DNA of 27,629 nt from a virus. The stretch covers positions 1-27,629 of IMG/VR virus record IMGVR_UViG_3300036801_000101; one strand, given 5' to 3'. Within the stretch, counting starts at the first letter, position 1; the number at the start of each line of letters is the position of its first letter. Positions 1 to 27,629 of the stretch are shown here, one piece after another. The translations under genes and the position numbers were made by a program. The notes under the pieces were generated by a model. The model made no database searches, was not told where the DNA came from, and saw only the letters and a list, made by a program, of their open reading frames with translations.

Positions 1-143
1 GCCCGGCGTGCGGGAACATCGGGTGCATTCTGAATTACGACATGATCGCGAAAATGGTTCAACGTAAGTGTGGGCATTGCGGTTGCGTCGTACGGCAACC
101 GCCCGTCGCGCCGCGGTTGTTCGCCGATCCCCAAGCGAAATAG
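1..143 (+). CDS. zinc-ribbon protein, C-terminal fragment (5' end outside window)
   Basis: The open frame enters from the left edge and ends at TAG 141-143, giving about 46 readable residues. The first partial codon (xGC) followed by PAC suggests a CPAC knuckle. A second C-x2-C (CGHC) lies about 23 residues on, as in a zinc ribbon. A proline-rich tail follows. Small zinc ribbons are common in phage regulatory and packaging-adjacent regions, but the fragment is too short to assign a role. It lies in the same orientation as the next two genes. The coding assignment rests on the paired cysteine motifs. Confidence 0.6.
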   Translation, partial: PACGNIGCILNYDMIAKMVQRKCGHCGCVVRQPPVAPRLFADPQAK

Positions 144-146
144 AAG

Positions 147-175
147 TTGACTTAGATTTTATATTTATATATTGT
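147..175 (+). promoter_or_regulatory. AT-rich sigma70-like promoter candidate
   Basis: TTGACT at 147-152 is followed either by TATATT at 168-173 (15-nt spacer) or by TATTGT at 170-175 (17-nt spacer). The stretch is the most AT-rich in the left end of an otherwise GC-rich sequence and lies in a non-coding gap just after a stop codon. It could drive the small zinc-ribbon gene at 299 and the genes beyond. The box match and position are seen; activity is inferred. Confidence 0.45.
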
Positions 176-298
176 CCGCGCATGCGAGACATTGCCGCCA
201 CCGGGCATCCCAACACAAACCCCGACAGCACATCGCTTCCCCGCACTTCGCGCTCCGGAACAAAACAATCCATTCTCTTATTTTTTCAGGAGCGTTGA

Positions 299-403
299 AT
301 GAGCAAACCGAAATGCCCATCTTGCGAGAGCGCCAACGTGCGCTTCACGTTGAAAAAGAAGATTTTCGTATGTAACCGATGCGGACACAGTTGGAAGAAA
401 TGA
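299..403 (+). CDS. 34-residue zinc-ribbon protein
   Basis: ATG at 299 is preceded by AGGAG at 288-292 with a 6-nt spacer, a good ribosome binding site. The product is 34 residues long: CPSC at residues 6-9 and CNRC at 25-28, separated by a basic strand-rich stretch, then GHSWKK. This is a minimal zinc ribbon with almost nothing outside the zinc-binding core. Such proteins may bind nucleic acid or act as adaptors, but the target cannot be told. It follows another zinc-ribbon gene end and an AT-rich promoter candidate. The strong ribosome site and the intact four-cysteine motif make a real gene likely. Confidence 0.7.
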   Translation: MSKPKCPSCESANVRFTLKKKIFVCNRCGHSWKK

Positions 404-596
404 ATCTTATCGAAACGGCCCGTGCCCTATCGACACGGCTCTTGCCAATCCCCCGACGTGCCAAAACAAAACACGACATCACCCGACTGCACATCGCGAC
501 ACGTAGCGGATCATGCCGACGAGTAACCATCCAAAACAAAAAACAATTTCTATTCGGGCCAAGTAGAAGCAAATCAAAACAAGGAGAATCGAAACG

Positions 597-1190
597 ATGT
601 CAAAGCAGAGGTTTTACGAAATAGAAATCGAGGGGATCGCTCCGCTCATTCAGAACAATCCCCAGAAGTCCAATCAGATCCGCGATCTCGATCCCAACCC
701 AACCCGCAGATCATCCCCCGACGATCCGCAAGAAGAGTGGCGATGTCTAGTCTACCATGTCGGCGAAAACGGAACGCTCGGGCATCCGTCAGAAGCGATG
801 GAGATGTGTCTGCGCGAAGCCGCGAAAGAGATCAACGGGAAGGGGAAGCGCACGTTGGCGAAGCCGGTAAAACAAACGTGTTTTCTTGAAGGCGAGCACA
901 TGATTATCACGAATCGCAAAATCGTCGATTGTTCGCCGAAGCGCATGGCACCGCGCAATTCGACGGGACAGACGACGCCGTACTACGCGCCGGAATTCGC
1001 GGCCGGATGGCGGATGAAGTTTCAAATTCATCTGATGAACGATCAATCGGTTACGCCGAATCTTCTCAAACGCGTGATCGATGAAGCTGGAGAGAGAATC
1101 GGACTCGGCGTGCATCGTCCGAAGTACGGGCGATTCATGGTGGTGCGCTTCGATGAAATCGACGTGCCATTGAAGAAAGCGGCGGCATAA
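597..1190 (+). CDS. phage protein of unknown function, 197 aa
   Basis: ATG 597 is preceded by AAGGAG at 581-586 (10-nt spacer). The N-terminus reads as a beta-strand followed by IEGIAPLIQNNP, and the C-terminus contains GLGVHRPKYGRFMVVRF. A similar pair of end motifs occurs, from memory, in a group of uncharacterised phage proteins in which 'G..PL' near the start and 'G.G..RP..GRF' near the end are conserved; no function is firmly known to me. There is no signal peptide or membrane segment. The gene lies upstream of the head operon, where terminase genes often sit, but it has no Walker or nuclease motif. A 227-nt leader separates it from the portal gene, so it may be a separate transcription unit. 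Confidence 0.85.
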   Translation: MSKQRFYEIEIEGIAPLIQNNPQKSNQIRDLDPNPTRRSSPDDPQEEWRCLVYHVGENGTLGHPSEAMEMCLREAAKEINGKGKRTLAKPVKQTCFLEGEHMIITNRKIVDCSPKRMAPRNSTGQTTPYYAPEFAAGWRMKFQIHLMNDQSVTPNLLKRVIDEAGERIGLGVHRPKYGRFMVVRFDEIDVPLKKAAA

Positions 1191-1365
1191 TTTTTCCCAC
1201 GAAGCGCGACATGACGAACCACGACAAACCCGGCCAAATCTATCCTTGCCGCGATCCTTCGGCACGAGTCCTAACGGCACGTACACGTGACATGCCTTGC
1301 CCTGACGCGCACGCTTCGACACCGGACAAGCACAGCCGCGACTAGACGTGGCGAACCGGAAACGT

Positions 1366-1387: not shown

Positions 1388-1417
1388 CGTTTCATTTCTT
1401 GTGGTAGAAATGCGTGC

Positions 1418-3838
1418 GTGCCTTCTCCTTCGCAAGCGATCGTCCGCCAACTTTCCGGGTTGTCCCAGATCGCGCAACGCATCACCCGGCGCAATCCGCA
1501 AACCACCGCACCGTCGCCGTACCAGAACGGCGACATGTCCAATTATTTCGGCCCGGGCCTAGAGGTTCAACCGATCGCACCGGTTGGGACTGATCCCCGC
1601 GGTTGGCAATATTGGATCAATCAAAACATGGTGTTCACGCCGCGGCCGGATTCCGAGTTCACCGCGCAAGCGTTGCGTGCGTTGGCGACGTACCCGTTGG
1701 CGCGATCCGCAATCGAGAACTCGAAAGATGTGATCTCCAATCTACCGCGGCAGATCCGCGCGAAGAAAAAGCCGGGCGAGAAAAATTCGGACGTGGACAA
1801 GCGTTCCCGCGGCGATCAAACGCTCAAGATGTTGAACGATTTTTTCGATTGTCCGGACGGCGAACACGATTGGGCAACGTGGGCACGCGAGTGGTTGGAA
1901 TATCTATACACGATCGACGCCGCATCGGTGTTCGTGCAGAAAATGAAATCCGGCCGGATCGTTGCGATGCGCATCATCGACGGCGCATTCATCACCCGGC
2001 TTGTCGATCAGTACGGTTACACGCCGCAACCACCGGATGCCGCCTATCAGCAATTGTGGAGTGGAACGCCGTCCACGGTTGGCGGAATCCCGTTCGTCGA
2101 TCTCACCACGGATCAATTGATCTACCGGCCGCGGAACATCGTGCCGCGCAACACCGTTTCCAGTTTCCTGTACGGGATGTCGCCCACCGAACAGAACGCC
2201 CAAGAAATTCAGATCGGACAAGAGCGGTTGAATTTTGTTCTCGCCTATTACACGACGGGCACGATCCCCGACGCGATGCAGATCGTTCCCCCGAACGTTT
2301 CCCCGGATCAATTGGCCTCGTCGCAAAAAGCGTTGACGGCCGAAATGTCCGGGCAGCCGTTCAAACGATCCGGGTTCATCAAACTGATTCAAGGGTTCGT
2401 CGATCGCGCACAACCCGGCGCGTCAAGCGGCGATCAATTCCTTTTCCCGAAAGAGAAATTGCTTGCGGATCCATTCGACGAATTGCACATCCGGAAGATT
2501 TTCTACGCGTACGGCGCATCAACGCAGAGGATTATGAAGCAGATGAACCGCGCGTCCGCGCAAACGAATCAAGAGGCGGCCGAAGAAGAAGGGACGATGC
2601 CGTTTGCGTTGTCTCTCGCGGGGATGGTGAATTGGGCGATCGCGAAACATTTCAAACTCGGGTTCGGCGAATACGAAATGACATTCGACGCGCAGAAGGA
2701 ACTGGACGTTGTGAAGCGATCGACGGCCGACAAAAACGATGTCGATGCCGGAATCATCACGCGCGATGAATCACGCACGGCCCGGGGATTGGACGAGGTG
2801 GGCGGCGACGCGGCGACGTTGATGATTACGACGGCGACGGGAACCGTGCCCGTCGATCTCGGCGATCAGGTGCAACACGCGAAAGATATGTTCGCCGCGA
2901 AACCACCACCGGCACCGATGAACGGCGGCGGCGGCGGTGTCCGCAAGTTGTGGGGACATTGCGCGGATCACGATGAATTTGCCCACGGTTGCAGCGAATG
3001 CGGATACGCGGAATTGAACCGCGTTCGTGATGAAGTCCGCAAACGCCGCACGCCGAAGATCGATCCCGGCCGTCACACGCCCGACACCCGGCAAGCGCAA
3101 GCGAAATTGGAACGCGCCGTCAGCCGGGTTTTCATGCGCCAAAAAGAAAAAGCCACGCTTGCGGCGAACCGGTTGCTAAAGAGTTGGAAAACGTTGTCCA
3201 AGGCCGGTGCGCAACACACCGCGGACGAAATCAACAACTCGCTGATCGCGGAATGGGCGTCGTTGCCGGTGGAGGCACGCGCGGCGATCGAACAAGCGGC
3301 GTTGTCTGCGGTTGCCGATTCGATGATTCAAATCGAATTGTCCGACGCCGGGTTGTTGTCCTCCGCGAACAAGATCGCCACGGAATACGCCGCCGATCGC
3401 GCGGCCGAAATGGTGGGGATGAAATACAACGCGGCCGGTGATCTCGTTGAAAACCCGAATGCGAAATGGGCGATCTCTGACACGACGCGGGATCGGTTGC
3501 GAGAGATCGTGAAAAACGCGTTTGAGGAGAAAACGCCGTTCTCGGAAGTGATCGACGACATCCGCGACGCCGATATTTTCTCGGAGTCACGCGCGGCCAT
3601 GATCGCGCGAACGGAGATCTCCAACGCGCAAGTCGGATCGAACTTCACCGTGTGGAAACAATCCGGGTTGGTGAAATCCGCGAAGTGGTTGGCGCTCGGG
3701 CCGGATCCGTGCCCGATCTGTCTCGCGAACAACAACGAAGTGCGGCCGTTGGGATCCCGGTTCACATCCGGAGACGAGTATCCGACTGCACACCCGAATT
3801 GCTATTGCATCTTGCAGGCCGTGGAATTCGCAGAGTAA
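1418..3838 (+). CDS. portal protein fused to Mu F / SPP1 gp7-like head morphogenesis domain
   Basis: This 806-residue protein appears to join two head proteins that are usually separate. Residues about 40-480 look like a phage portal: the SAIENSKDVISNLPRQI region, a YGMSPTEQNAQEIQIGQERL helix region, and RSTADKNDVDAGIITRDESR near the end of the core. The portal ring is the DNA entry and exit channel of the capsid. The C-terminus (about 690-806) carries RAAMIARTEISNAQ, CPIC at 765-768 and HPNCYC at 792-797, which matches the Phage_Mu_F (PF04233) signature of minor head proteins that bind the portal. The linker adds a possible metal knuckle (C515, H518, H523, C525, C528) after a glycine run. 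The start is GTG 1418 without a clear ribosome site; an in-frame ATG at 1535 is an alternative. The protease gene follows after 12 nt. Confidence 0.9.
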   Translation: MPSPSQAIVRQLSGLSQIAQRITRRNPQTTAPSPYQNGDMSNYFGPGLEVQPIAPVGTDPRGWQYWINQNMVFTPRPDSEFTAQALRALATYPLARSAIENSKDVISNLPRQIRAKKKPGEKNSDVDKRSRGDQTLKMLNDFFDCPDGEHDWATWAREWLEYLYTIDAASVFVQKMKSGRIVAMRIIDGAFITRLVDQYGYTPQPPDAAYQQLWSGTPSTVGGIPFVDLTTDQLIYRPRNIVPRNTVSSFLYGMSPTEQNAQEIQIGQERLNFVLAYYTTGTIPDAMQIVPPNVSPDQLASSQKALTAEMSGQPFKRSGFIKLIQGFVDRAQPGASSGDQFLFPKEKLLADPFDELHIRKIFYAYGASTQRIMKQMNRASAQTNQEAAEEEGTMPFALSLAGMVNWAIAKHFKLGFGEYEMTFDAQKELDVVKRSTADKNDVDAGIITRDESRTARGLDEVGGDAATLMITTATGTVPVDLGDQVQHAKDMFAAKPPPAPMNGGGGGVRKLWGHCADHDEFAHGCSECGYAELNRVRDEVRKRRTPKIDPGRHTPDTRQAQAKLERAVSRVFMRQKEKATLAANRLLKSWKTLSKAGAQHTADEINNSLIAEWASLPVEARAAIEQAALSAVADSMIQIELSDAGLLSSANKIATEYAADRAAEMVGMKYNAAGDLVENPNAKWAISDTTRDRLREIVKNAFEEKTPFSEVIDDIRDADIFSESRAAMIARTEISNAQVGSNFTVWKQSGLVKSAKWLALGPDPCPICLANNNEVRPLGSRFTSGDEYPTAHPNCYCILQAVEFAE

Positions 3839-3850: not shown

Positions 3851-5080
3851 ATGGACAAGCTTCTAAAATATTTCCCCCTCGTGAAGATCGATGAAGCGGC
3901 GCACATGGTCTGGGGCGTCGTCACGTCCGAAAAACCCGATTCCGATGATGAGATCTGCGATTATCCGTTCACGAAAGGTGCAATTCAGAAATGGTCAGAC
4001 GACACGTTCGCGAAAACCACGAACGCCGGACAGGATCCATCTCTCGGCAACATGCGGGTGATGCATCAATTGGAGATCGGCGGCAAGGCAATCAAAATCA
4101 CGTTCGACGACGACGCGAAAAAAATCTGGGTTGGATCGGAACCGGCCGACGATGATGTTTGGCATTTATTGAAGGGCGGGTTTCTGACGGCGCATTCGAT
4201 CGGCGGCGGGTACGCGTGGAAACGGAAAGAAGGGGAGTACATCCGGTTCGGCCCGACGATCACGGAAATCAGTTATGTGGACAAAGGCGCGAACCCGGAC
4301 GCGTCGTTTTCGTACGTCAAAGCCGATGGTTCGATCGAAATGCGCAAGTTCGCGCAACCCGGGGATCGAGAGAAAAACCTGATCCATAAATTGCACACGC
4401 CGATGGTGACGGTGCCGCTAGAAGAACTCCGTGCCGAACTGGGCACAGGGTTAGCAAAAATCCGTGCGGTGATTGACGATTTCGTGGCACAAACGTCCGC
4501 AGTAAATGGAGCACACACGATGAATCCGGAACAAATCAAGAAAGCCGCCGCCGCGTTGGGAATGTCCGAAGAAGATTTCAAGAAACACTTTGTTTCGGCC
4601 GACGCGTTGGAGAAGGCCAAAGGCGGCATCGCCGCATTACACGGGCATCTTGAAAAGGCGATGGAAGATCACGACGCGATGGCGAAGGCGCACGCCGCGT
4701 TGGGTTCGATGCACGAAAAAAATTCCGCGCACCTCGGCAAATGCATGAAGGCATGCAAGGCCGTCATGGGTTCCGACGACAAGGAATCGGAAAAGGCGAT
4801 CAAGGCGCTTCTCGCCGATCTGGTAAAAGCCGAACCGAAACCGGAACCGGCACCCGCACCGGCACCGGCACCCGGAACGCCGGAAGTATTCACCAAGGCG
4901 GATTTCGCCGCGGCCGTGCAGAAGTTGAAAGAAGATTCCGACGCCGCGATCGCGAAGGCCGTCAAGGACGCGTTGGACAAGGTGCCCGACAATCCACGCG
5001 CGGCGTTGTTCTCTGTGACGCGCGAGAACGACATCAAGAAGGCCGCGGAGGTCAACACCGCGGATCCGTTGCCGGTTTAA
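3851..5080 (+). CDS. XkdF-like prohead protease fused to scaffold-like C-terminus
   Basis: The N-terminal 165 residues resemble the XkdF/S78_2-type herpesvirus-fold phage protease. Candidate catalytic residues are H72 in MRVMHQLEIGG and S116 in LTAHSIGGGY, followed by TEISYVDKGANPDASF, a segment typical of these proteases. Residues about 224-409 are helical and charged, with an Ala-Pro repeat near 335-350, as in capsid scaffolds. Such enzymes cleave scaffold and capsid termini during head maturation. The position between portal and capsid genes fits. The ATG lies 12 nt after the portal stop with no obvious Shine-Dalgarno, so it may be translationally coupled. An internal start within the gene is listed separately. 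Confidence 0.88.
   Translation: MDKLLKYFPLVKIDEAAHMVWGVVTSEKPDSDDEICDYPFTKGAIQKWSDDTFAKTTNAGQDPSLGNMRVMHQLEIGGKAIKITFDDDAKKIWVGSEPADDDVWHLLKGGFLTAHSIGGGYAWKRKEGEYIRFGPTITEISYVDKGANPDASFSYVKADGSIEMRKFAQPGDREKNLIHKLHTPMVTVPLEELRAELGTGLAKIRAVIDDFVAQTSAVNGAHTMNPEQIKKAAAALGMSEEDFKKHFVSADALEKAKGGIAALHGHLEKAMEDHDAMAKAHAALGSMHEKNSAHLGKCMKACKAVMGSDDKESEKAIKALLADLVKAEPKPEPAPAPAPAPGTPEVFTKADFAAAVQKLKEDSDAAIAKAVKDALDKVPDNPRAALFSVTRENDIKKAAEVNTADPLPV
4520..5080 (+). CDS. possible nested scaffold protein (internal start in protease gene)
   Basis: An in-frame ATG at 4520 (residue 224 of the protease fusion) is preceded by TGGAG at 4507-4511 with an 8-nt spacer, better than the site of the full-length start. 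It falls just where the protease part has ended and the helical scaffold-like part begins. The product would be 186 residues, starting MNPEQIKKAAAALGMSEEDF. In phage lambda, the scaffold Nu3 is made from an internal start in protease gene C in the same way. The site and domain boundary are seen; separate expression is inferred by that analogy. Confidence 0.45.
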   Translation: MNPEQIKKAAAALGMSEEDFKKHFVSADALEKAKGGIAALHGHLEKAMEDHDAMAKAHAALGSMHEKNSAHLGKCMKACKAVMGSDDKESEKAIKALLADLVKAEPKPEPAPAPAPAPGTPEVFTKADFAAAVQKLKEDSDAAIAKAVKDALDKVPDNPRAALFSVTRENDIKKAAEVNTADPLPV

Positions 5081-17719: not shown

Positions 17720-17901
17720 TCGGCGGAAAAGTTTCTGCGCAACAAAAGCCAACGGCACTTGGAACCATGCTGCAGGCATCGACGTACGGCATGACGATTC
17801 CGAACGTATACGGCACAACGCAAGTTCCGCTTCTCGTTTTCTGGGCGGCGGATCTGCGCAAAGGCAAGTGCCACGGAAAGAGCGGGGGCGGATCTAGCTA
17901 A
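17716..17901 (+). CDS. N-terminal piece of the split tail hub, 61 aa
   Basis: ATG 17716 overlaps the peptidase stop. The protein reads TALGTMLQASTYGMTIPNVYGTTQVPLLVFWAADLRKG and ends in a Gly/Ser tail. A TYG..IP..YGT..V pattern followed by a Gly-rich linker is the usual beginning of a single-chain tail hub of the Phage-tail_3/gpJ-like type. Here the frame stops with TAA at 17899-17901, and the next gene starts with the same A (TAATG). The -1 frame carries TAG at 17895-17897, so a ribosomal -1 shift in the G-run cannot fuse the two. Reinitiation is the plausible link. Confidence 0.75.
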   Translation: MIGGKVSAQQKPTALGTMLQASTYGMTIPNVYGTTQVPLLVFWAADLRKGKCHGKSGGGSS

Positions 17902-20900: not shown

Positions 20901-21182
20901 CCGTCGAACAAGGTGAATTACAACGCGCGGGATTTCGCGATCGCGGATCCCGGGGGAACCCCGGCCGTGTACTACGTGACGATTCAAGACACCGCGCAAG
21001 TCGGCGACACCGGCGCGTTGACGAATCTGCCGTCGTTCTGCGAATTGACGACGGACAAGGTTGGCGTGCCCGGCTATACATACATGGGATTCATCCAAGT
21101 GACGAACCCGACTTCGGATCCGCGCGATGTCGCCGGGCCGGGCGGTTGGCCGCCGCCGCAAACGTTTATCGTGAGTCCGTAA
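17901..21182 (+). CDS. tail hub / central fibre protein (Phage-tail_3-like, gpJ-type)
   Basis: The 1093-residue body starts MSGGGSLGGSFGSQPTYIEN, so its N-terminus is a Gly/Ser linker rather than a normal domain start. Residues about 15-290 form the first hub region. Residues about 295-475 look like an inserted beta-sandwich module (SPNFVGDALIAFGCF ... AWYATAVAANPGTEITIG), a kind often associated with receptor or glycan binding. LVARKILTVAGNRYSMLRNV near 641 starts a stretch matching Phage-tail_3 (PF13550)-type hubs, ending DASLSMEAEDFVYG. The remaining C-terminus is beta-rich. The protein plugs the tail end and probably holds the fibres. Translation depends on the TAATG overlap with the 61-residue piece. 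Confidence 0.85.
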   Translation: MSGGGSLGGSFGSQPTYIENIDFLIGANPIECVLQIWESSQIFKLDYPAAQRSVAGITTGLVTITDPHFYAVLAVTAEIALSGTFDDFGAPGAVPYSGTYELPLWNAAQPGPDLINPSYIRFPCYKWNFLTDGNVVDCSNLLTRTGRPAGFNGFVNIYYAATSAQHGHKTPLQELCLEFESSAGNNAAVYVPIPGQQITYSMYAGIGSSEIDLGSSPAIPVVLPEVKGSFALFPPRGDAHFPDMIEDIIKSGQRQADAAISQIQRGLNCNEMPGPIQSNMYIALGGRPVVLPCRSPNFVGDALIAFGCFQYNAGAGASIGDTAGNAWTPIHAADNAGAWYATAVAANPGTEITIGDNGDAVDGAGFVLELDQGTTAFDNSNVATGTGAELEIDIDITVSGTPTFIVGFAFASPVSGLDNPITDIPAPWTQMFLASDFYENAVVFYRVVSNPGTYSISIPKDVSQPWWAVLMAFKAPQPVPYPVALGKIVDDDTMNVVRAQCQATGLMGSLNMNAQQDAGTWLEQIYQCANADPLWSGFVLKSIARSEVSAVGGGVVYTAPTAAGPVAVLTEDDFIGDRSQPLVTVKRKAQVNAYNIIQAQYFDRDDDYHPSTAAEPLAGASALFGPRKKSPDNLPMIQSPLVARKILTVAGNRYSMLRNVYAWKAKAKWLNLEARDLVEITESKIGIFDLAVRLTKITENNDASLSMEAEDFVYGCNDPNPIDIATVQDSTNPNFGGDPGTVNVPIIFEPPPRLLSQQNQAQIWAVVSGASPNYGGCVAFVSTDGGASYPTMLGAIGGNAAQGFTVGDWPAAADPDTTNDLSVDLTESLGTLQTFDPAERDAFFQSLCYVGGGGDPCIPYELMAYDIANLTGANLYTLPATGGGTNELRRSVFGAPLVGVGVDHPNGSDFAYLDPGGSGILKINMDPVWIGKTLYFKFLAVNTFFSNQQDLSDATPYAFTPTGCPTGTQNPNNNYVNTPTVDLSETTTTNVHMVQTSVQFPSNKVNYNARDFAIADPGGTPAVYYVTIQDTAQVGDTGALTNLPSFCELTTDKVGVPGYTYMGFIQVTNPTSDPRDVAGPGGWPPPQTFIVSP

Positions 21183-21183
21183 A

Positions 21184-22632
21184 ATGACGCTCGTTCCATC
21201 GATCATCCGGTTGAATTCGATCCTTCCCGCGGCGCCTGCCGGGTACATCAACGTGCGGCCACAACACGACGGGAATTTCCCGATCGACGACACGACGTTC
21301 TATGTGCCGAATCTGGGTTTTGTTGACGCGCGAACCACCATCACCGAAACGATCCGGGATGCGTCGTACGGAAAGCTAGTCACGTTCACGAACGCCGCGG
21401 CGATCGCCGTGACTCTCGATTCCAACGTGTTAGATACACCGGCCGGTTTCATGTGCTTCGCGCTTGTTGCCGGTGCGGGTACGGCCACATTTACGCCGTC
21501 GTCCGGAACGATCAACGGCCTCGCGTCGATCCCGTTGGCGCAAGGCGAAGGCGGGATTTTCTTTTTCGACGGCACCAACTGGGAAGTCGCGACGATGATC
21601 GGCACAACCGTCGTGATCCCCGTCACGGAAGGCGGAACCGGTAGAAGTACCCTCACTGCGCATGCCGTCCTTGTGGGCGAAGGCACGTCGCCGATCGGCA
21701 TGGTTGGGCCGGGAACGGCCAATTGGCCGCTGCTAGGGGCCGGTGGTGCGGCGGATCCGGCATTCTCGCAACCCCGCGGCAATACCGCCGTCGCGCAGTT
21801 CGCCGATTCGACGACGAACCCCACAACCGGAGATCTCGCGAAGTTCGACGCCAACGGCAACGTCGCCGACGCCGGGATCCTCGCAAGTGCCGTAGTTTCA
21901 ACCGGCGTGACATTAACGGCCGATCTGCCGGTGTTCGGCGCTGGCGGCAACGCCGTCAAAGTTGGAACAAAAAGCGGAAATACGGACGAAGTTGCAACCG
22001 TCACCGGATCGTTGACATCCGGAAACCTTGTCGAATCTGACGCTTCCGGAAACATCGTCGATGCGGGTGTCGCGCCGGGTGCGTTGGCGACGAAAGCCGC
22101 GATTCAAGCGGAATCGTACACGTATTGGCCCGACACCGGCGCGGCCAACGCGTACGTCATCACGCCGTCGCCTGCAGTCTCGTCGTACACGGCCGGGCAG
22201 GGTTGGCTCGTCAAAATTTCCGCGGCGAACACCGCCGCATCGACAATCAACGTTTCCGCACTTGGAACGAAAGCAATTAAAAAATGGTCGTCCGGATCTC
22301 TCGTCGATCTCGCGTTGGGCGATTTCTCCATCGGCCAGATCGTCTATCTGAAATATGACGGCACGTTGTTCCAAGTCGTCGCCGGTCTTTCTGCGAGCGG
22401 CGGATCGACGGTGCCGACACCGGTTCCGGAAGAAGTTGTGGCCTTCACAGGCACGGGTGGAACTCTCGCGAACACGCCTAGCGCGGTGATCGGATATACG
22501 TTCGTGAAGTTGTTTCGTGACGGCCAGAGATTGCTTTCCGGTGGGGGAAACGATTACACATTTTCGGGAACGGCGATCACGCTCGCGACGGCATCGCCCG
22601 GATCGACGTTCATCGCCGACTATTACAAGTGA
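21184..22632 (+). CDS. tail fibre / receptor-binding protein
   Basis: ATG 21184 lies 1 nt after the hub stop, without a Shine-Dalgarno site. The 482-residue product is rich in Gly, Ala, Thr and Ser. It contains EGGTGRSTLTAHAVLVGEG (about 149-167), a motif repeated in many phage tail fibres, and two related units, GDLAKFDANGNVADAGI and GNLVESDASGNIVDAGV. The C-terminus ends in FVKLFRDGQRLLSGGGNDY followed by a beta segment, as in fibre tips that bind the cell surface. There are no catalytic motifs or membrane segments. The host receptor cannot be predicted. Confidence 0.78.
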   Translation: MTLVPSIIRLNSILPAAPAGYINVRPQHDGNFPIDDTTFYVPNLGFVDARTTITETIRDASYGKLVTFTNAAAIAVTLDSNVLDTPAGFMCFALVAGAGTATFTPSSGTINGLASIPLAQGEGGIFFFDGTNWEVATMIGTTVVIPVTEGGTGRSTLTAHAVLVGEGTSPIGMVGPGTANWPLLGAGGAADPAFSQPRGNTAVAQFADSTTNPTTGDLAKFDANGNVADAGILASAVVSTGVTLTADLPVFGAGGNAVKVGTKSGNTDEVATVTGSLTSGNLVESDASGNIVDAGVAPGALATKAAIQAESYTYWPDTGAANAYVITPSPAVSSYTAGQGWLVKISAANTAASTINVSALGTKAIKKWSSGSLVDLALGDFSIGQIVYLKYDGTLFQVVAGLSASGGSTVPTPVPEEVVAFTGTGGTLANTPSAVIGYTFVKLFRDGQRLLSGGGNDYTFSGTAITLATASPGSTFIADYYK

Positions 22633-22642
22633 GGTGCAACCC

Positions 22643-24019
22643 ATGAAGAAATTTTTCGGTGGAGTCCTAGCAGTTCTGACGATGTTGGCCTTGTTGGGCG
22701 CGGCTTCGATCATCATGCCGATCGGCGGCGGCACCGGGCTTTCGTCGCCAACCGCGAATCAGATCATGTATACGAACGGCGCGGCGGCGTTTGGTTTGAT
22801 CTCCGGAACCACCGGGCAATGCGTCGAATTCGTCACATCCTCGCCGCCGATCTCCACAACATGCCCGATCTCTGGCGGCACGACGGGCGGCGGGTTTGCG
22901 TGGAGCGGATCGCAAACGGACTCGGCAATCACCGCGGACGGATCGACGACGATCCGATGTTTGGGCGTGGCGGGAACGCATTTCACGATCGCGAGTTCGT
23001 ACTTGATGGTGACGGATTGCAACGCGACAACGTTCGTGGTCAACGACGGCGTGACGATCTTCACGGTGGGGCATCGTATTTTCGCATCAACGTCGATCAC
23101 TGTCGGCGGCGGATCCAGCGGCACGATTCGCAACAACGGACAACTCGCGGCAACCGGTGGAAACGCGTCCGGTGCTACGGCCGGCTCCGCTGGCGGGGCC
23201 GGTGCGATGGATCAATCTGCTTGGGGCGGCCTGCCAACCGGTTGTTTATGGTCTGGGCTTGCAACTTGTGGCACGAGCGTTCCCGCAGGCGTGATCGGAA
23301 TCACGGCGACGACGGGCAACGGTGGACAGGGAACGACTAGTATCGGTAATGGCGTGGCGACGGGCGACATCTGTAGCGCGAGCACAACCGGCGTGAACGG
23401 CACGCAAGGTGGTAGCGGCGGAAACGCTGGCGGCGGTGTTCATTCGGGCGGTGGCGGTGGAACCGTTCACGCGCAAGCATCTTGCACGACGAACAATCCC
23501 GCGGCATACGCGCAGTTAAGTTTGCCGTTTGCGCTCACGTGGATCGGGATGACGGGCGGCAATAACAACACGATGGGATACATCCCGACGAACGTGGGTT
23601 CGTCGTCGGGCGGCGCTGGCGGCGGCGACAACACAAGCGCCGGTGGTGGATCTGGCGGAAGCGGCGGAAACGGTGGTAATGGAAACCTTGTGATCCTCAG
23701 TTCACCAACGATCACCGTCAACACCGGCGCGGTGATTTCATCGGATGGCGCGAACGGGGGAAACGGCGGCAACGGCGCGAACGGTGTCGGCGGAAATGCT
23801 GGCGGCGGTGGTGCGGGTGCCGGTGGGCAAGGCGGCAACGGCGGCGTGATCGTTCTCGTTTACCACGCGTTGACGAACGGCGGATCGATTCACGCGAGCG
23901 CCGGAACGCACGGCAATCATGGAACGCACGGCAACGGGGCAGGCACCGGATCTGCTGGAACGGATGGAAACAACGGCAACGATGGACTCGCCGGATTGGT
24001 TTTGCAGATTCCGCAGTAG
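22643..24019 (+). CDS. glycine-rich adhesin-like protein with N-terminal signal sequence
   Basis: ATG 22643 has GAGGTG at 22631-22636 with a 6-nt spacer; the frame extends further upstream, but this start is the one with a ribosome site and it avoids overlapping the fibre gene. The 458-residue product starts MKKFFGGVLAVLTMLALLGA, a typical Sec signal or anchor sequence. Then comes a GGGTGLSSPTANQIMY unit like the one in the neighbouring fibre. The rest is beta-rich with long Gly/Asn-rich stretches (about 155-200, 230-295, 330-405) and a GxxGxxG-like tail near 420-450. Polyglycine-helix stretches are known in T-even-type gp38 adhesins. It is probably a surface-binding protein; a signal sequence is unusual on a tail component assembled in the cytoplasm. 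Confidence 0.75.
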   Translation: MKKFFGGVLAVLTMLALLGAASIIMPIGGGTGLSSPTANQIMYTNGAAAFGLISGTTGQCVEFVTSSPPISTTCPISGGTTGGGFAWSGSQTDSAITADGSTTIRCLGVAGTHFTIASSYLMVTDCNATTFVVNDGVTIFTVGHRIFASTSITVGGGSSGTIRNNGQLAATGGNASGATAGSAGGAGAMDQSAWGGLPTGCLWSGLATCGTSVPAGVIGITATTGNGGQGTTSIGNGVATGDICSASTTGVNGTQGGSGGNAGGGVHSGGGGGTVHAQASCTTNNPAAYAQLSLPFALTWIGMTGGNNNTMGYIPTNVGSSSGGAGGGDNTSAGGGSGGSGGNGGNGNLVILSSPTITVNTGAVISSDGANGGNGGNGANGVGGNAGGGGAGAGGQGGNGGVIVLVYHALTNGGSIHASAGTHGNHGTHGNGAGTGSAGTDGNNGNDGLAGLVLQIPQ

Positions 24020-24045
24020 AAATTTTGCGATCTGTTCTATTGCGG
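24011..24045 (+). terminator. 11-bp hairpin spanning the adhesin stop codon
   Basis: CCGCAGTAGAA (24011-24021) pairs with TTCTATTGCGG (24035-24045) with one G-T wobble and a 13-nt loop; the adhesin TAG is inside the 5' arm. No U-tract follows. It may end or protect the fibre mRNA and separate it from the lysis cassette. Its position argues against a start of the next gene at 24025. Confidence 0.5.
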
Positions 24046-24075
24046 ACGGTGTTACCGCGTGCAATTATCCGTGGC

Positions 24076-24528
24076 GTGAAGTCGGATCTTATTTTTTGGC
24101 TCGCCTTCGCGTTTGGTCAAGGTCTTTTCATTCTGCGACGCGCGGCGCTCGCCGTTCGATCTCCGATGAATGCAATGCGGACGCGGCGGCAATACGTCCG
24201 TTTGAATTGGGACATTCTCGGGATCCGTTCGGCGTTGGAATTTGTTTTCGTTTTCACACCCTACCGGCACGTTCCACTTGATCGGTTGACGGCCGCGTTG
24301 CCGTGGCATCTACCGTTCAACATTCCGCAAGACAGCCTCGCATTCTGCATTCTGCTCGGGTATCTCTCCAGTTCCATGATGGATTCGGCGGCGATGCAAG
24401 AAAAATTGTTCGGTTTCCCGATCCCCGGTTGGGTGAAAGAAACCATCCCGCAGATTCCGGCCGTGCAACAATTGGTTCAAAATCTGACAACTAAAACGGT
24501 GGCGGGAGAGCCGGCCGATCGGGATTAA
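24076..24528 (+). CDS. membrane protein, holin candidate
   Basis: GTG 24076 is chosen because it follows the 24011-24045 hairpin and because its first residues MKSD match those of the other small membrane protein at 25097; TTG 24025 in the same frame is possible. Neither has a good ribosome site. The 150-residue product has a membrane segment at about 3-28 (DLIFWLAFAFGQGLFILRRAAL), a moderately hydrophobic stretch near 50-60, and a second likely segment near 90-105 (SLAFCILLGYLSSSMMDS), then an amphipathic C-terminus. No family is recognised. Presence just upstream of a lysozyme-like candidate makes a holin-type role possible, but this is inference. Confidence 0.6.
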   Translation: MKSDLIFWLAFAFGQGLFILRRAALAVRSPMNAMRTRRQYVRLNWDILGIRSALEFVFVFTPYRHVPLDRLTAALPWHLPFNIPQDSLAFCILLGYLSSSMMDSAAMQEKLFGFPIPGWVKETIPQIPAVQQLVQNLTTKTVAGEPADRD

Positions 24529-24535
24529 CTTGGCG

Positions 24536-24808
24536 ATGTCACACGGGGGGAATGTGAACATCCGACAACATTTCGAGACTACACCCGAAGGACGCTTGGC
24601 CGCGGTGTGCCGGATCGCGATGTTCCGGGAAGTGAATCTGCATCACCACCTCCCAGATTATGCCGATCTGCGCGAATCGTTGCGCATCCCGGTTCAGGTC
24701 GAATTGTTAGGAGCACAACTGGACGAGGCGCGATTGAAACCGGACAACGACGAACGGATCCGGCAACTGATCGAAGAAATCGCGCTTCTAAAGGCGGCCA
24801 ATGTTTAA
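24536..24808 (+). CDS. small soluble protein of unknown function, 90 aa
   Basis: The frame opens at TTG 24530 or ATG 24536; the ATG is preferred although neither has a clear ribosome site. The product is helical, with a short His-rich stretch (NLHHHLPDYADL) and a C-terminal amphipathic helix (NDERIRQLIEEIALLKAA) that could form a coiled coil. No family is recognised. It overlaps the next gene by 8 nt, so the two are probably co-translated within the lysis/membrane cassette. Confidence 0.6.
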   Translation: MSHGGNVNIRQHFETTPEGRLAAVCRIAMFREVNLHHHLPDYADLRESLRIPVQVELLGAQLDEARLKPDNDERIRQLIEEIALLKAANV

Positions 24809-25100
24809 GTGGGCGGTGTTGCTGGAGGATGCAAAGTGTTGCGTTTCGCATTGCGATGTCGGAGCTCGGCACGTCTGGGCACAGGATTTCCCACGCGGCG
24901 CAGAGGTGGCCTACTGTTGCAAACATTTCACCGCGGTGATCTCGGAGATATTCGACGCGCGTGATGCCATCTATGCGCGTTCGACGCAAAACGCGTTGAT
25001 GGAATTGGAGAAGCGGGTTCGTTCGATCATCACGCTTCATAAGCGGATGGACGAAGAAACGTTGCGCGTCAACAGGGTGTTGAATGGAGTCGACGAGTGA
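24801..25100 (+). CDS. Cys/His-containing protein of the lysis cassette, 99 aa
   Basis: ATG 24801 overlaps the upstream gene and has AAAGGCGG just before it. The N-terminal half has CCVSHC (residues 13-18) and CCKH (39-42), spaced like a zinc-binding site. The C-terminal half is one long charged helix (ALMELEKRVRSIITLHKRMD). No family is recognised. Its stop overlaps the GTG of the next gene (GTGA). The combination of a metal-like knuckle and a coiled-coil-type helix suggests protein-protein contact, but its function is unknown. Confidence 0.65.
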   Translation: MFKWAVLLEDAKCCVSHCDVGARHVWAQDFPRGAEVAYCCKHFTAVISEIFDARDAIYARSTQNALMELEKRVRSIITLHKRMDEETLRVNRVLNGVDE

Positions 25101-25309
25101 AATCCGATTTCAGCGTGTTGATCTGGATCGTCGGCGTCGTGTTCATGGCGGGGATCACCTACGCGGCATTCCAACAATTGCGGAAAGATGTGAACGCGGT
25201 GGGCGGAAAGCAACGCCGTTTCGAGAAAAATCTGGTTCTCGTTTTGATGGCGATCACCGACAAGCCGGAACACCGGATTTTCCTGGCGCAATTTCTGAAA
25301 GATCCTTAG
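25097..25309 (+). CDS. small single-pass membrane protein, 70 aa
   Basis: GTG 25097 has TGGAG at 25085-25089 with a 7-nt spacer and overlaps the upstream stop. The product has one strong membrane helix at about 6-26 (SVLIWIVGVVFMAGITYAAF), a short basic linker, and an amphipathic C-terminal helix. That layout fits small lysis-associated membrane proteins such as holins or spanin-like partners, but no defining motif (such as a lipobox) is visible. It lies immediately upstream of the lysozyme-like gene. Confidence 0.7.
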   Translation: MKSDFSVLIWIVGVVFMAGITYAAFQQLRKDVNAVGGKQRRFEKNLVLVLMAITDKPEHRIFLAQFLKDP

Positions 25310-25323
25310 ACGAGGTGCGGCCG

Positions 25324-25707
25324 ATGCAAGATCTATCCGTGAAAATCGATGTGATGATTAAAGGGATCGCGAGGGCGGAAGGTTTCTACAAACCGGATAG
25401 CCTACCCGCGCGGATCCACAACCCGGGCGATCTGGAAATCGGGGATCGCGGGTACGGTGTGCAAGCCGGGAAAACGTGTTTTCCGGACGATCGCACCGGA
25501 TGGAATTGGCTTCACGGGGAAGGCACGTTGATGTTGTCGTCGATGCAAACCCGGCATCGTTCGCGCATCTACACGCTCGACATGACGTGGTTGCAAGTCG
25601 CCGATCATTGGACAGGGCACGACAATCCGGAAGCGTGGGCGGAAATCGTAAGCGCCGCGTGCGGTGCGCAACCGTTCAACACCTTGCAGGAATACGTCGA
25701 TTCTTAG
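25324..25707 (+). CDS. lysozyme-like candidate endolysin, 127 aa
   Basis: ATG 25324 has GAGGTG at 25312-25317 with a 6-nt spacer, the same site type as the adhesin. The frame is open upstream but that part lies over the previous gene. The product reads IARAEGFYKPDSLPARIHNPGDL, then a Gly-rich GYG segment, FPDDRTGWNWLHGEG and WLQVADHWTGHDNPEAW. E19 in RAEGF and the N-P-G-D-L stretch resemble small lysozyme/transglycosylase-like phage proteins, in which a glutamate acts as catalytic acid. Its position after small membrane genes supports a cell-wall role. It could instead be a virion-associated protein. Its stop overlaps the stop of a convergent gene. Confidence 0.55.
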   Translation: MQDLSVKIDVMIKGIARAEGFYKPDSLPARIHNPGDLEIGDRGYGVQAGKTCFPDDRTGWNWLHGEGTLMLSSMQTRHRSRIYTLDMTWLQVADHWTGHDNPEAWAEIVSAACGAQPFNTLQEYVDS

Positions 25708-25865
25708 AAAAACGTCGATGCGGTCAGAAACATCAACCCACACGCGATCAACCGCGTGCGGTACGGATCCACCACCGCAGGCCACGCGAACGCGCCGATC
25801 CCGAAAAGAACGGCCGCGATAACAACTAAGATGATGTGCAACGGCGCCTCGTTTCTGGGGAACAT
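25704..25865 (-). CDS. 53-residue membrane protein, two predicted helices
   Basis: On the minus strand ATG at 25865 is preceded by GGAGG with a 5-nt spacer (CCTCC at 25871-25875 on the plus strand). The product is MFPRNEAPLHIILVVIAAVL and onwards: helix 1 at about 9-31, a short polar loop (VDPYRTR), and helix 2 at about 39-53. Similar two-helix mini-proteins are common in phage genomes; function is unknown. Its TAA overlaps the plus-strand TAG of the lysozyme-like gene by 4 nt (TTAG), so the two operons converge with no space between them. Confidence 0.7.
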   Translation of the reverse strand: MFPRNEAPLHIILVVIAAVLFGIGAFAWPAVVDPYRTRLIACGLMFLTASTFF

Positions 25866-25866
25866 T

Positions 25867-25965
25867 TCAACCTCCAATTTTGAGATCGGGCACCAACCCG
25901 GAGGGGTTAATTCCGAACGGTGCCCGATCCCATTTCCCTGAGTGTGGGCAGGGAAAACGTTTCAT
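25867..25965 (-). CDS. possible 32-residue protein upstream of the membrane gene
   Basis: A minus-strand ORF starts at ATG 25965 (an in-frame ATG at 25986 would give 39 residues) and stops 1 nt before the ATG of the 53-residue gene; its last codons contain that gene's GGAGG. The sequence MKRFPCPHSGKWDRAPFGIN has a protein-like mix but no known family, and the starts lack good ribosome sites. Two strong hairpins fall entirely inside it, so the region may be a structured leader instead. Confidence 0.35.
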   Translation of the reverse strand: MKRFPCPHSGKWDRAPFGINPSGLVPDLKIGG

Positions 25966-25999
25966 GGCGCGTACGGTGGTTTCCATGTGACGTACCACC
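25884..25999 (-). promoter_or_regulatory. array of three hairpins in the leader of the minus-strand membrane gene
   Basis: First: GATCGGGCACC (25884-25894) pairs with GGTGCCCGATC (25919-25929), 11 bp without mismatch, enclosing a nested AACCC/GGGTT hairpin. Second: TTTCCCT (25933-25939) pairs with AGGGAAA (25950-25956). Third: GGTGGT (25975-25980) pairs with ACCACC (25994-25999) with ATG 25986 in its loop. On the minus strand the 11-bp stem ends 8 nt before the GGAGG ribosome site. Attenuation, mRNA protection or a protein-binding RNA are possible; no known riboswitch consensus is recognised. Confidence 0.55.
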
Positions 26000-26019
26000 A
26001 CACGCAATGCGCAACGAAT

Positions 26020-26238
26020 TTAGCCGCCACTACCACCGGGTGCGTCAGATGATGCAACGCTGGGTGAAGCATTCAATTGCGCCTCCAATTCGATGATCGC
26101 CGGGTACGCCAACTCCACCAACTTTTCCGGATGGATCCCCAACGTGATCGGCTTTTCGTTGCGGTAGATGTCGAACGTCGTCGTTCCGAACGGGTTCACG
26201 TGGGCGTGTACGCGCACGTCCTTGAAATTGATGTCCAA
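26020..26238 (-). CDS. small protein of unknown function, 72 aa
   Basis: The start is TTG at 26238 with AGGAG 5 nt upstream (CTCCT at 26244-26248 on the plus strand), lying inside the end of the preceding gene. The N-terminal two-thirds alternate strands (INFKDVRVHAHV, TTTFDIYRNEKPITLGI) and a helix (PEKLVELAYPAIIELEAQL); the end is a flexible Ser/Ala/Gly tail. No family is recognised. The gene is co-transcribed with the 135-residue gene; the ribosome site is well placed and the TTG start is the only one close to it. Confidence 0.7.
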   Translation of the reverse strand: MDINFKDVRVHAHVNPFGTTTFDIYRNEKPITLGIHPEKLVELAYPAIIELEAQLNASPSVASSDAPGGSGG

Positions 26239-26246
26239 GATTTCTC

Positions 26247-26654
26247 CTATGCCGCGGGTGCGGGTGCGGCCGTCGCCGGTGGCGGCGGCGGAAGCGCATT
26301 CAGAAATGCGACGACGGCGTTGATGTATTTTTGCACCGTGGGAATATCGGCCGTGTGCCCGGCATCGGAAAGCGCCGTCGTGAGAAGCGGCGCAAGAATC
26401 GTCGTCGCTTCCGACAATTTTTGTGGGCCGGTTCCCGATTGCGTTCCCATTGCGGCGAATTTCTGTTCGACGCCGACAACCACGCCAACGGTGGTTTGAA
26501 AAACGGATCCCAGAAGTGGATTGAAAAGCGCGATCTCGGGGCCTGCAGCAATGGCGATCTGCGTGGCTTTTCCGATCAATGGTTCCAGCGCCTTGAATCC
26601 GTTTTTGAAATCTGTTCCAAGGTGTTTGAGGAAGGAAACGAAGCTGTTCGTCAT
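26247..26654 (-). CDS. helical protein of unknown function, 135 aa
   Basis: The ATG at 26654 has no Shine-Dalgarno site but lies 9 nt after a good -10 box, so the mRNA is probably leaderless or nearly so. The product is amphipathic and hydrophobic in stretches (ATQIAIAAGPEIALFNPLLG, VFQTTVGVVVGVEQKFAAMG), contains SGTGPQKLSEATTILAPLL, and ends in a Pro/Ala-rich tail. A similar 'VE..M....GS/T...KL..A' layout occurs, from memory, in uncharacterised phage proteins. It may associate with membranes, but no clear transmembrane helix is certain. Its stop overlaps the ribosome site of the next gene. Confidence 0.72.
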   Translation of the reverse strand: MTNSFVSFLKHLGTDFKNGFKALEPLIGKATQIAIAAGPEIALFNPLLGSVFQTTVGVVVGVEQKFAAMGTQSGTGPQKLSEATTILAPLLTTALSDAGHTADIPTVQKYINAVVAFLNALPPPPPATAAPAPAA

Positions 26655-26663
26655 GCGGGAGAA

Positions 26664-26691
26664 TCTATACCGGATCGCGATCGCGATTCAA
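26664..26691 (-). promoter_or_regulatory. minus-strand promoter with 14-bp palindrome in the spacer
   Basis: Read on the minus strand: TTGAAT (26691-26686), 16-nt spacer, TATAGA (26669-26664). The spacer and -35 overlap ATCGCGATCGCGAT (26674-26687), a perfect 14-bp palindrome that could be an operator. The ATG of the 135-residue gene begins 9 nt after the -10, so a normal start point leaves about 0-3 nt of leader. Confidence 0.55.
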
Positions 26692-26694
26692 CTG

Positions 26695-26919
26695 TTAAGG
26701 TTTTGAATGTTTCGGACAGAGATCGCGATCGATGCCATCCGGCGTCGCGTGGCCGTTGCAGATCGGCGCGTCGCACGTGATCGGTTTACCCGACAATGCT
26801 CGGCCGATCTCCGCATCGCATAATTTCGTGGACGACAACGCGCAGAACCGGCACCGCGGCGCACGGCCTTTGCCGCGGGAACAAACGATCATGTTGTTTC
26901 CGATTCTTTCACAGGGCAT
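26695..26919 (-). CDS. Cys-rich probable zinc-binding protein, 74 aa
   Basis: ATG at 26919 has a GGAGGGAG ribosome site directly upstream (CTCCCTCC at 26921-26928 on the plus strand); the longer upstream frame overlaps other genes and lacks sense. Cysteines at 3, 13, 23, 26, 34, 49, 54 and 68, with H57 and H71, suggest two metal sites; CRFC, TCDAPIC and LCPKH are the clearest groups. Small proteins with CDxPxC and CPxH groups recur, from memory, in phage genomes without known function. It overlaps the upstream zinc-ribbon gene by 31 nt, as part of a tightly packed operon. Confidence 0.75.
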   Translation of the reverse strand: MPCERIGNNMIVCSRGKGRAPRCRFCALSSTKLCDAEIGRALSGKPITCDAPICNGHATPDGIDRDLCPKHSKP

Positions 26920-27092
26920 GCTCCCTCCATTTCCGACGCGAGGACGCCGTTCGGTTCCGTCCAAAACGTGCCGCATTGCGAACATCCCCACTCTTGATCG
27001 ACATCGCGAAAATGCACGTCGCGCACAAGGTGGATTTCGTTCCCGTAACACATCGGGCAACGTTTCGACGGCGGCCAGATCCGCAACATCAT
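26889..27092 (-). CDS. zinc-ribbon protein, 67 aa
   Basis: The ATG at 27092 overlaps the TGA of the preceding gene (ATGA), implying coupled translation; a second ATG follows at once. CPMC (residues 12-15) and CSQC (37-40) are spaced as in a zinc ribbon, with a WGCSQCGTFW strand that is typical of the second knuckle. A basic N-terminus and an acidic C-terminus flank it. The function may be nucleic-acid binding or adaptor, but nothing in the sequence fixes the target. Confidence 0.75.
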   Translation of the reverse strand: MMLRIWPPSKRCPMCYGNEIHLVRDVHFRDVDQEWGCSQCGTFWTEPNGVLASEMEGACPVKESETT

Positions 27093-27403
27093 CCGTGCAT
27101 TCCCACGGCATCGCGGAAATTCTGACAACCACAAAATTGATCGCCGCGGCAGAGAACGGCGTTGTGTTTCCCGCGCGGGTGTCCGCACATGCAAAGCGCG
27201 TTGTCGTCGGGCACGGCGGCCAACGCGTCCAACAATCCATCGACGGTGACAACGCGAAGGAGGCCGTGCGGCGTTGGGATTGTGAACGCGGCGCGTTCGA
27301 TCCATTCTTTTATCGATACCGGAATCCGATCTCCCTCGATCGCCCGAAGATATTCGCGGCACGCATGCGCCAACGACATCGATCCATTAACTTTATCGCT
27401 CAT
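27089..27403 (-). CDS. protein with C-terminal Cys/His cluster, 104 aa
   Basis: ATG at 27403 overlaps the stop of the truncated upstream gene (ATGA), with a GGGGGA-like site nearby. The N-terminal 65 residues are helical (LAHACREYLRAIEGDRIPVS, VDGLLDALAAV). The C-terminus has LCMCGHPRGKHNAVLC and FCGCQNF: C71, C73, H75, H80, C85, C91 and C93. A CxCGHxxxxH...C...CxC layout is, from memory, frequent in small phage proteins and looks like a zinc site. No enzyme motif is visible. Confidence 0.75.
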   Translation of the reverse strand: MSDKVNGSMSLAHACREYLRAIEGDRIPVSIKEWIERAAFTIPTPHGLLRVVTVDGLLDALAAVPDDNALCMCGHPRGKHNAVLCRGDQFCGCQNFRDAVGMHG

Positions 27404-27629
27404 AGATCCCCCAACGTGATTTCCCGTTCGACAAGTTGCCACGTTTTTTTTTGTCCGCGTGGGCCTTTCTTCCCCCAACCGTGAACGAATATCTTTCCGC
27501 GTGACAAGATCCACACTTCCGCGTTGTCTCTCGCGGCGCGTGCCTGCTCTACTTCTTTTTCGTCGTCGGGATCGGCCGCAAATCCTTGAATCTTCCGGAT
27601 CCGTTTGTTGAAATTCGACGATGCCGTTG
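27400..27629 (-). CDS. unknown protein, C-terminal fragment (5' end outside window)
   Basis: The minus-strand frame enters from the right edge and stops with TGA (27402-27400), overlapping the next start. The 75 readable residues include a charged helix (DDEKEVEQARAARDNAEVW), strands (WILSRGKIFVHGWG), a basic loop (KKGPRGQKK) and a final strand ending in LGDL. No family is recognised. It is the first visible member of the leftward operon that also makes the three Cys-rich proteins. Confidence 0.65.
   Translation of the reverse strand, partial: TASSNFNKRIRKIQGFAADPDDEKEVEQARAARDNAEVWILSRGKIFVHGWGKKGPRGQKKTWQLVEREITLGDL

What the first reader, a model, noticed from the sequence alone, without database searches (positions are those of the whole stretch)
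1..27629. Strong excess of GATC
I counted 11 GATC in 1441-2040 and 14 in 12001-12600, where about 2 per 600 nt would be expected at this base composition; the minus-strand operon shows fewer (about 7 in 26020-26620). Many lie at codon borders such as GCG-ATC. This points to a host without GATC-cutting restriction, to protective methylation, or to a sequence preference like that of the cyanobacterial HIP1 octamer.
Basis: seen in the sequence. Interest (0 to 1): 0.6.

Follow-up and report, generated by a model that had tools for sequence, protein, structure and literature searches.

The report
Phage genome rich in GATC, GACC-poor
This phage fragment really does use the four-letter word GATC about twice as often as its proteins and codon habits require, while it has almost erased the one-letter neighbours GACC and GGTC; some of its closest sequenced relatives do neither, so the pattern is recent and looks like DNA-level selection, probably imposed by the host's sequence-specific defence or methylation, although the enzyme is unknown.

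Summary
The window (a tailed-phage contig) has 423 GATC, 15.3 per kb, evenly spread, against 103 expected from base composition and 212 from dinucleotides. Codon usage does not explain it: a shuffle keeping amino acids and codon counts gives 193 in coding DNA against 348 seen (z 16), and matched synonymous-choice tests favour GATC in all three codon phases.

GACC/GGTC are nearly absent: 22 in coding DNA against 191 expected; [GC]GG before TC 0 of 87; G before ACC 1 of 69. ACC codons are kept and the preceding codon changes instead, so this is avoidance by any route, not GACC-to-GATC mutation. Several hexamers are also missing.

Both halves recur in G002 (a relative) and, more weakly for GACC, in the distant virus L112; they are absent from relatives 78-83% identical in the same capsid-like protein. 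It is not HIP1. Subcluster B3 mycobacteriophages are a published precedent for the GATC excess, but lack the GACC purge.

Best reading: restriction-type counter-selection of GACC/GGTC and other sites, with GATC partly the synonymous refuge and partly favoured for an unknown reason. Host and methylation are unknown. Interest moderate.

The parts
1..27629 (.). genome-wide GATC excess: 423 sites, 15.3 per kb, even along the contig
1..27629 (.). genome-wide near-absence of GACC/GGTC: 28 sites left (5 GACC, 23 GGTC on the + strand); longest site-free stretch 3.9 kb
1418..3838 (+). portal-MuF fusion gene (phrog_2662), used for relatives; contains the 1441-2040 cluster of 11 GATC
3851..5080 (+). putative head maturation protease (phrog_80, weak; phrog_21715)
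5131..7032 (+). capsid-like structural gene (phrog_13692), 83% identical in signature-negative L024 and in signature-positive G002
9078..9851 (+). phrog_8234 structural gene used for comparison of relatives
11111..14509 (+). long ORF (1132 aa, no family match), carries the 12001-12600 cluster of 14 GATC
17901..21182 (+). tail protein (phrog_1101)
22000..26000 (.). 8 of the 28 surviving GACC/GGTC sites lie here, in a stretch with few confident genes after 22632
26020..26654 (-). two small minus-strand genes; GATC density there is not reduced

Best explanation
The DNA of this virus has been reshaped by selection on short DNA words, on top of ordinary codon usage. SHOWN: GACC/GGTC is purged to about a tenth of expectation through any available synonymous route, and GATC is chosen more often than codon usage, dinucleotides or the purge predict. 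INFERRED: the purge is counter-selection by a host restriction-type defence (restriction-modification, BREX-like or similar) that recognises GACC/GGTC, together with others that explain missing hexamers such as GCGCGC, GCCCGC, GTCGAC and TGATCA. GATC is a permitted word and the main synonymous refuge for GAC|C and [GC]GG|TC, so it absorbs part of the purged sites. A further, separate pull towards GATC remains (modest in this virus, strong in G002 and L112), of the kind published for subcluster B3 mycobacteriophages. Its likeliest cause, inferred only, is a GATC-directed DNA methylation or repair process in the host or virus. Host, enzyme and methylation state are unknown.
For: Synonymous null: GATC 348/193, GACC+GGTC 22/191. 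Stepwise model of coding DNA: GATC predicted 187 (codons), 243 (+dinucleotides), 270 (+dinucleotides and GACC ban), 318 (+trinucleotides and ban), observed 337; GACC predicted 139 even with trinucleotides, observed 22. Context-matched choices in the window: G before ACC 1/69 vs 124/282 before other Thr codons; G before GTC OR 0.02; [GC]GG before TC 0/87 vs 49/149; with GGTC excluded, GATC still favoured, OR 2.6 (p 0.002) and, where GACC/GGTC is no alternative, 1.84 (p 0.01). Avoidance rather than mutation: ACC is 26% of Thr codons in the window and 28% in signature-negative G003, so G|ACC was not turned into G|ATC (from counts). Surviving coding GGTC sit mostly after TGG or ATG, where the first codon has no synonym. 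GATC in the window aligns to CATC 8, GACC 7, AATC 4, GATT 4 in L024. GATC pooled OR: window 5.2, G002 7.2, L112 8.2; 71 cellular stretches reach at most 3.56; GACC OR 0.03 in the window, cellular minimum 0.3. Missing hexamers beyond a 4-mer model: GCCCGC 0/17.5, GCGCGC 0/16, GTCGAC 0/11, TGATCA 0/9, GACGTC 0/9.
Against: No restriction or modification enzyme with GACC/GGTC specificity is identified, and a non-palindromic 4-bp target this frequent would be unusual (general knowledge; a literature search for such a motif returned nothing). The composition is also distorted at dinucleotide level (AG/CT 0.46, TA 0.36), which restriction alone does not easily explain and which could be a host mutational signature. 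Host unknown; the cellular sample is nearly all Pseudomonadota and at most 20 kb per genome. In the window the independent GATC pull is modest. The surviving sites are orientation-biased (5:23, p 0.0009), which is unexplained.
Confidence: 0.45

Rival explanations
1. Host genomic signature: the virus follows the context-dependent mutation and repair bias of an unsampled host whose own genome is GATC-rich and GACC-poor.
For: Distortion extends to dinucleotides and trinucleotides and to uncalled DNA; phages often resemble their hosts in word usage (PMC1360066, PMC5224470, abstracts only).
Against: Window and G002 have different overall profiles (correlation 0.65) and share mainly GATC up and GACC down. 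None of 299 Pseudomonadota is near zero for SSGACCSS relative to its control, and 71 cellular stretches have GATC OR at most 3.56 and GACC OR at least 0.3. The B1-B5 mycobacteriophages examined were all isolated on Mycobacterium smegmatis, yet only the B3 phages show the strong GATC pull, so isolation host alone does not set it. Loss of G|ACC without loss of ACC codons argues against a simple GACC-to-GATC mutation.
Confidence: 0.25
2. Methylation-directed ratchet as proposed for HIP1 (Elhai 2015, PMC4390886): a GATC methylase linked to mismatch repair preserves any mutation that creates GATC, so GATC accumulates without function.
For: GATC gained from several one-step neighbours and in all codon phases; in L112 most one-step neighbours are depleted together.
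Against: In the window AATC/GATT, CATC/GATG and GTTC/GAAC are not depleted while GACC is almost gone; B3 phages have the pull without any GACC loss. No methylase found in the virus genes scanned.
Confidence: 0.15
3. Pure displacement: GATC is high only because GACC/GGTC and other words are banned and GATC is the leftover synonym.
For: Phase 0 (GAT|C vs GAC|C) OR 37.7, where the ban and the pull coincide; adding the ban raises predicted GATC.
Against: GATC stays favoured where GACC/GGTC is not among the alternatives (window OR 2.6 and 1.84; G002 4.5 and 4.9); it is the top-favoured 4-mer when all others are in the model; codons + dinucleotides + ban predict only 270 of 337.
Confidence: 0.1
4. 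Codon usage and amino-acid content alone.
For: GAT and ATC are common codons, and the codon-preserving shuffle already gives 193 GATC in coding DNA, well above base composition.
Against: 348 vs 193, z 16 under the codon-preserving shuffle; uncalled DNA 13.2/kb.
Confidence: 0.01

Closest known systems
GATC/GGATCC over-use in subcluster B3 mycobacteriophages (Siranosian et al. 2015, PMC4841201)
   Same: Genome-wide GATC about 4x base-composition expectation, lineage-specific within a cluster; the same synonymous test is strongly positive (OR 3.9-4.4); GGATCC also raised.
   Different: B3 phages (Bassalto, RagingRooster) show no GACC/GGTC loss (0.96 of expected; 1.00 under the codon null); GC 0.68; unrelated host group and GC content.
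HIP1 (GCGATCGC) of cyanobacterial genomes (PMC4390886)
   Same: Repeated enrichment of a word built on GATC, cause debated, possibly methylation-linked.
   Different: The octamer is not clearly enriched here beyond its parts (9 vs about 5); the unit is GATC itself; HIP1 is a chromosomal feature.
Restriction-site avoidance in phages and prokaryotes (Rusinov et al. 2015, PMC4687349)
   Same: Near-absence of defined words, including palindromic hexamers; differs between close relatives.
   Different: The main avoided word, GACC/GGTC, is a non-palindromic 4-mer; that study of prokaryotic genomes saw avoidance only for orthodox Type II sites and GATC, not for Type I, III or IIC/G sites; no enzyme identified here.
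GATC avoidance in phages and mobile DNA (phiX174, PMC5014478; Neisseria provirus loci here)
   Same: GATC under strong genome-wide pressure.
   Different: Opposite sign (L045, L046, L053: OR 0.04-0.12).

Membership tests
HIP1-type repeat | octamer GCGATCGC strongly over-represented relative to its parts | tested here: not met
   9 observed, about 5 expected from CGATCG and flanks
HIP1-type repeat | cyanobacterial chromosome with CGATCG methylase | tested here: not met
   sequence is an IMG/VR phage contig with head and tail genes; host and host methylase not testable
B3-type GATC-rich phage | genome-wide GATC excess not shared by near relatives | tested here: met
   window 15.3/kb vs L024/L026 6.0/kb; OR 5.2 vs 1.1-1.2
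B3-type GATC-rich phage | GATC excess survives codon-preserving null in all three phases | tested here: met
   phase 2 is the weakest in the window (OR 1.56 to 1.84)
B3-type GATC-rich phage | GACC/GGTC unaffected | tested here: not met
   window 0.12 of expected, B3 1.00
Restriction-site avoidance | defined words depleted on both strands beyond codon and short-context expectation | tested here: met
   GACC 5/92 and GGTC 14/87; GCGCGC, GCCCGC, GTCGAC, TGATCA near 0
Restriction-site avoidance | avoidance by any synonymous route rather than one mutational change | tested here: met
   G before ACC lost while ACC usage kept
Restriction-site avoidance | host enzyme cutting the avoided word | not testable with these tools
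   host unknown
GATC-modifying phage (methylase) | virus encodes a DNA methylase or other DNA modifier | tested here: inconclusive
   none found in the window genes scanned or in G002 genes scanned by Pfam/PADLOC, but the window is a fragment
IbrA/PAPS-reductase + ParB module as cause of GATC excess | phages with the module show GATC excess | tested here: not met
   Laroye OR 0.44, Bacillus 031MP004 OR 0.28, RHph_I4 1.48

The most novel reading that the evidence does not exclude
GATC attraction and the GACC/GGTC purge are two faces of one unknown system that tells GATC from its transition neighbour, sparing or marking GATC and attacking GACC/GGTC, and that acts on several environmental phages: the window and G002 lineages, and more weakly the distant virus L112.
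Probability: 0.2. Interest if true: 0.75.

Novelty: new variant of a known kind. Interest (0 to 1): 0.48.

Why it matters
GATC over-use in phages has one published, unexplained case in the literature found here (B3 mycobacteriophages). This adds further lineages, rules out codon usage and, from three phages with the same gene pair, a PAPS-reductase module as a sufficient cause, and pairs the excess with a near-total purge of a non-palindromic four-base word. Because near relatives with and without the trait are available, it makes the cause directly testable by native sequencing and host finding. If a defence reads GACC/GGTC while sparing GATC, it would be a new specificity with a strong evolutionary footprint.

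Tried and rejected
Codon usage as sole cause: rejected. HIP1: rejected. Simple GACC-to-GATC deamination: not supported, since GATC gains come from several words and ACC codons are retained (with 104). PAPS-reductase/ParB (IbrAB or Dnd-like) module of B3 phages as cause: rejected, because phages carrying the closest homologues avoid GATC or are near neutral. Virus-encoded methylase in G002: none found. One shared overall composition in the signature-positive viruses: rejected, correlation 0.65. AGACC (EcoP1-like) as the true avoided word: only 6 of the 28 surviving GACC are AGACC, so GACC itself is avoided. Single origin of the trait: not settled; the capsid-like protein tree allows one change (weak, 56/59), the portal and phrog_8234 trees need two, with moderate support. 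Host search: the portal alignment hit mainly Pseudomonadota proviruses and a Methanoregulaceae MAG contig (37% identity), and none shows the trait; 299 Pseudomonadota genomes screened without a match. Literature search for a GACC/GGTC methylated motif: nothing. Direct accession look-ups for older B-cluster phages failed.
Full report
What the sequence is. The window is an IMG/VR virus record of 27,629 bases with a portal-MuF fusion, head protease, capsid-like, tail and other structural genes. A 10 kb contig (L001) is a near-identical strain (99.45% over 8.9 kb). No phage in the annotated collection matched the 8 kb of DNA searched. Portal relatives are found mostly in environmental viral contigs and proviruses. 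The host is unknown.

The count. The window has 423 GATC (15.3/kb), against 103 by base composition, 212 by dinucleotides and 378 by the maximum-order Markov model. The last is conservative because it takes GAT and ATC as given. Density is even (variance/mean 1.07) and the minus-strand end is not poorer.

Codon usage. Shuffling synonymous codons within the genes, keeping protein and codon counts, predicts 193 GATC where 348 are seen (z 16), and 191 GACC+GGTC where 22 are seen (z -19). A context-matched test asks whether the third base of a codon is chosen to make GATC, compared with the same codons in front of other bases. It gives odds ratios of 1.56, 11.3 and 37.7 in the three phases for the window, 5.1, 5.7 and 40.7 for G002, and 0.5-1.7 for signature-negative relatives. 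Pooled, GATC is the most favoured of 16 palindromic 4-mers in the window (OR 5.2), G002 (7.0) and L112 (7.7).

The missing word. GACC/GGTC is almost banned. G precedes an ACC codon 1 time in 69, against 124 in 282 before other threonine codons; [GC]GG precedes TC 0 times in 87 against 49 in 149. Threonine still uses ACC in 26% of cases, like G003 (28%), so the neighbouring codon has moved away instead of ACC mutating to ATC (counts). Most surviving coding GGTC follow TGG or ATG, codons without synonyms. Both strands are depleted, so the pressure acts on DNA, not on mRNA. This is the pattern expected from counter-selection, not from a single mutation type.

How much of the GATC excess follows from the ban. 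A synonymous-choice model of coding DNA predicts 187 GATC from codons, 243 with dinucleotide preferences, 270 with the GACC ban added and 318 with trinucleotides and the ban; 337 are observed. Trinucleotide terms may themselves be consequences of GATC. With the GGTC alternative removed, GATC is still favoured modestly in the window (OR 2.6 and 1.84) and strongly in G002 (4.5 and 4.9). So displacement is part of the cause, not all of it.

Distribution among relatives. Of about 170 loci compared, the window/L001 and G002 (L002, L025, L098) are the outliers for GACC, and L112 joins them for GATC. L027, a short fragment close to G002, also has the trait. L024 and L026, 83% and 78% identical in the capsid-like protein, do not have it: GATC 6.0/kb, GACC at expectation. 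L024 comes from the same metagenome as L001. In the portal and phrog_8234 trees the window groups with signature-negative viruses and G002 lies outside, with moderate support; the capsid-like protein tree weakly joins the positives. Window and G002 differ in general composition (correlation 0.65) and in which hexamers are missing, so they share the GATC/GACC trait rather than one composition. Among 71 cellular stretches, nearly all Pseudomonadota, the GATC OR reaches 3.56 at most and the GACC OR 0.3 at least.

Known cases. Siranosian et al. (PMC4841201) reported GATC and GGATCC at four times expectation throughout subcluster B3 mycobacteriophages, unexplained. Two B3 phages (Bassalto, RagingRooster, annotated Pipefishvirus) tested here give pooled OR 3.9-4.4, while B1 and B2 phages isolated on the same host species give 1.6 and 0.9; B4 and B5 phages are near or below 1.7 in every phase. 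That these two are B3 rests on their genus, Pipefishvirus, and on the subcluster of the phage Pipefish as I recall it. B3 phages carry a PAPS-reductase/ParB gene pair beside the terminase, which suggested a sulphur-based DNA modification. Phages with the closest homologues of that gene show no GATC excess, so the idea is rejected as a general cause. B3 phages show no GACC loss, so the paired pattern is new relative to that case. HIP1 does not apply.

Interpretation. Shown: a DNA-level excess of GATC and a near-ban on GACC/GGTC, both beyond codon usage, in some but not all close relatives. Inferred: the ban is counter-selection by a restriction-type host defence, since it uses any synonymous route, resembles the missing hexamers that phages commonly show, and changes quickly between relatives. 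GATC is partly the synonymous refuge and partly favoured on its own, perhaps through GATC-directed methylation or repair. The main rival is a host mutational signature; the dinucleotide distortion (AG 0.46, TA 0.36) fits it, and the host is not known, so it stays open.

Limits. Gene calls were made by a simple codon model and partly by long ORFs; about 20% of the window is uncalled. Relatives are saturated at synonymous sites, so substitution directions cannot be polarised well. Cellular comparison is mostly Pseudomonadota. Methylation cannot be seen in assembled sequence.

Noticed in passing
1-27629: Dinucleotides AG/CT (0.46 of expected) and TA (0.36) are unusually rare in the window; close relatives are at about 0.9 and 0.6. 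CT is avoided even across codon borders (0.39).
   Followed up: partly
1-27629: Hexamers absent or nearly so beyond a 4-mer model: GCGCGC 0, GCCCGC 0, GTCGAC 0, TGATCA 0, GACGTC 0, TTCGAA 1, GCCGGC 4 (coding DNA).
   Followed up: partly
3907-25722: The 28 surviving GACC/GGTC sites are orientation-biased: 5 GACC and 23 GGTC on the + strand (p 0.0009).
   Followed up: no
L056-L058 (contig 3300028072_000005): The related virus G002 lacks a different, longer list of words, many non-palindromic (CATCGA 0 of 22, GAACTC 0 of 16, GAGCTT 3 of 31, CGTACG 0, CAATTG 0), and enriches CCGCGG, GAGCTC and CTCGAG.
   Followed up: partly
L070-L071 (contig 3300005537_000038): GGACC/GGTCC is absent (0 of about 41 expected) from the 40 kb of this relative searched, as expected if the host cuts GGWCC.
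   Followed up: no
L112 (contig 3300046472_000096): A distant relative with GATC 15.7/kb, pooled OR about 8, and partial GACC depletion.
   Followed up: partly
L045, L046, L053: Neisseria and Bergeriella provirus loci show the opposite: GATC 0.3-0.6/kb, OR 0.04-0.12.
   Followed up: no
L178:13543-17995; L010:200-2632; L017:5521-7250: PAPS-reductase-like gene with ParB-like neighbours near the terminase in B3 mycobacteriophages, with homologues near the portal in two relatives of the window virus; a possible DNA-modification module.
   Followed up: partly
L062:4677-5414 (-): Signature-negative relative G004 carries a gene that looks like a C5-cytosine DNA methylase (its start reads LDLFCGAGG; one member of the scanned set matches PF00145).
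   Followed up: no
L029: A 6.9 kb contig in a Methanoregulaceae (peat archaeon) genome bin encodes a portal 37% identical to the window's; host or mis-binning unresolved.
   Followed up: partly
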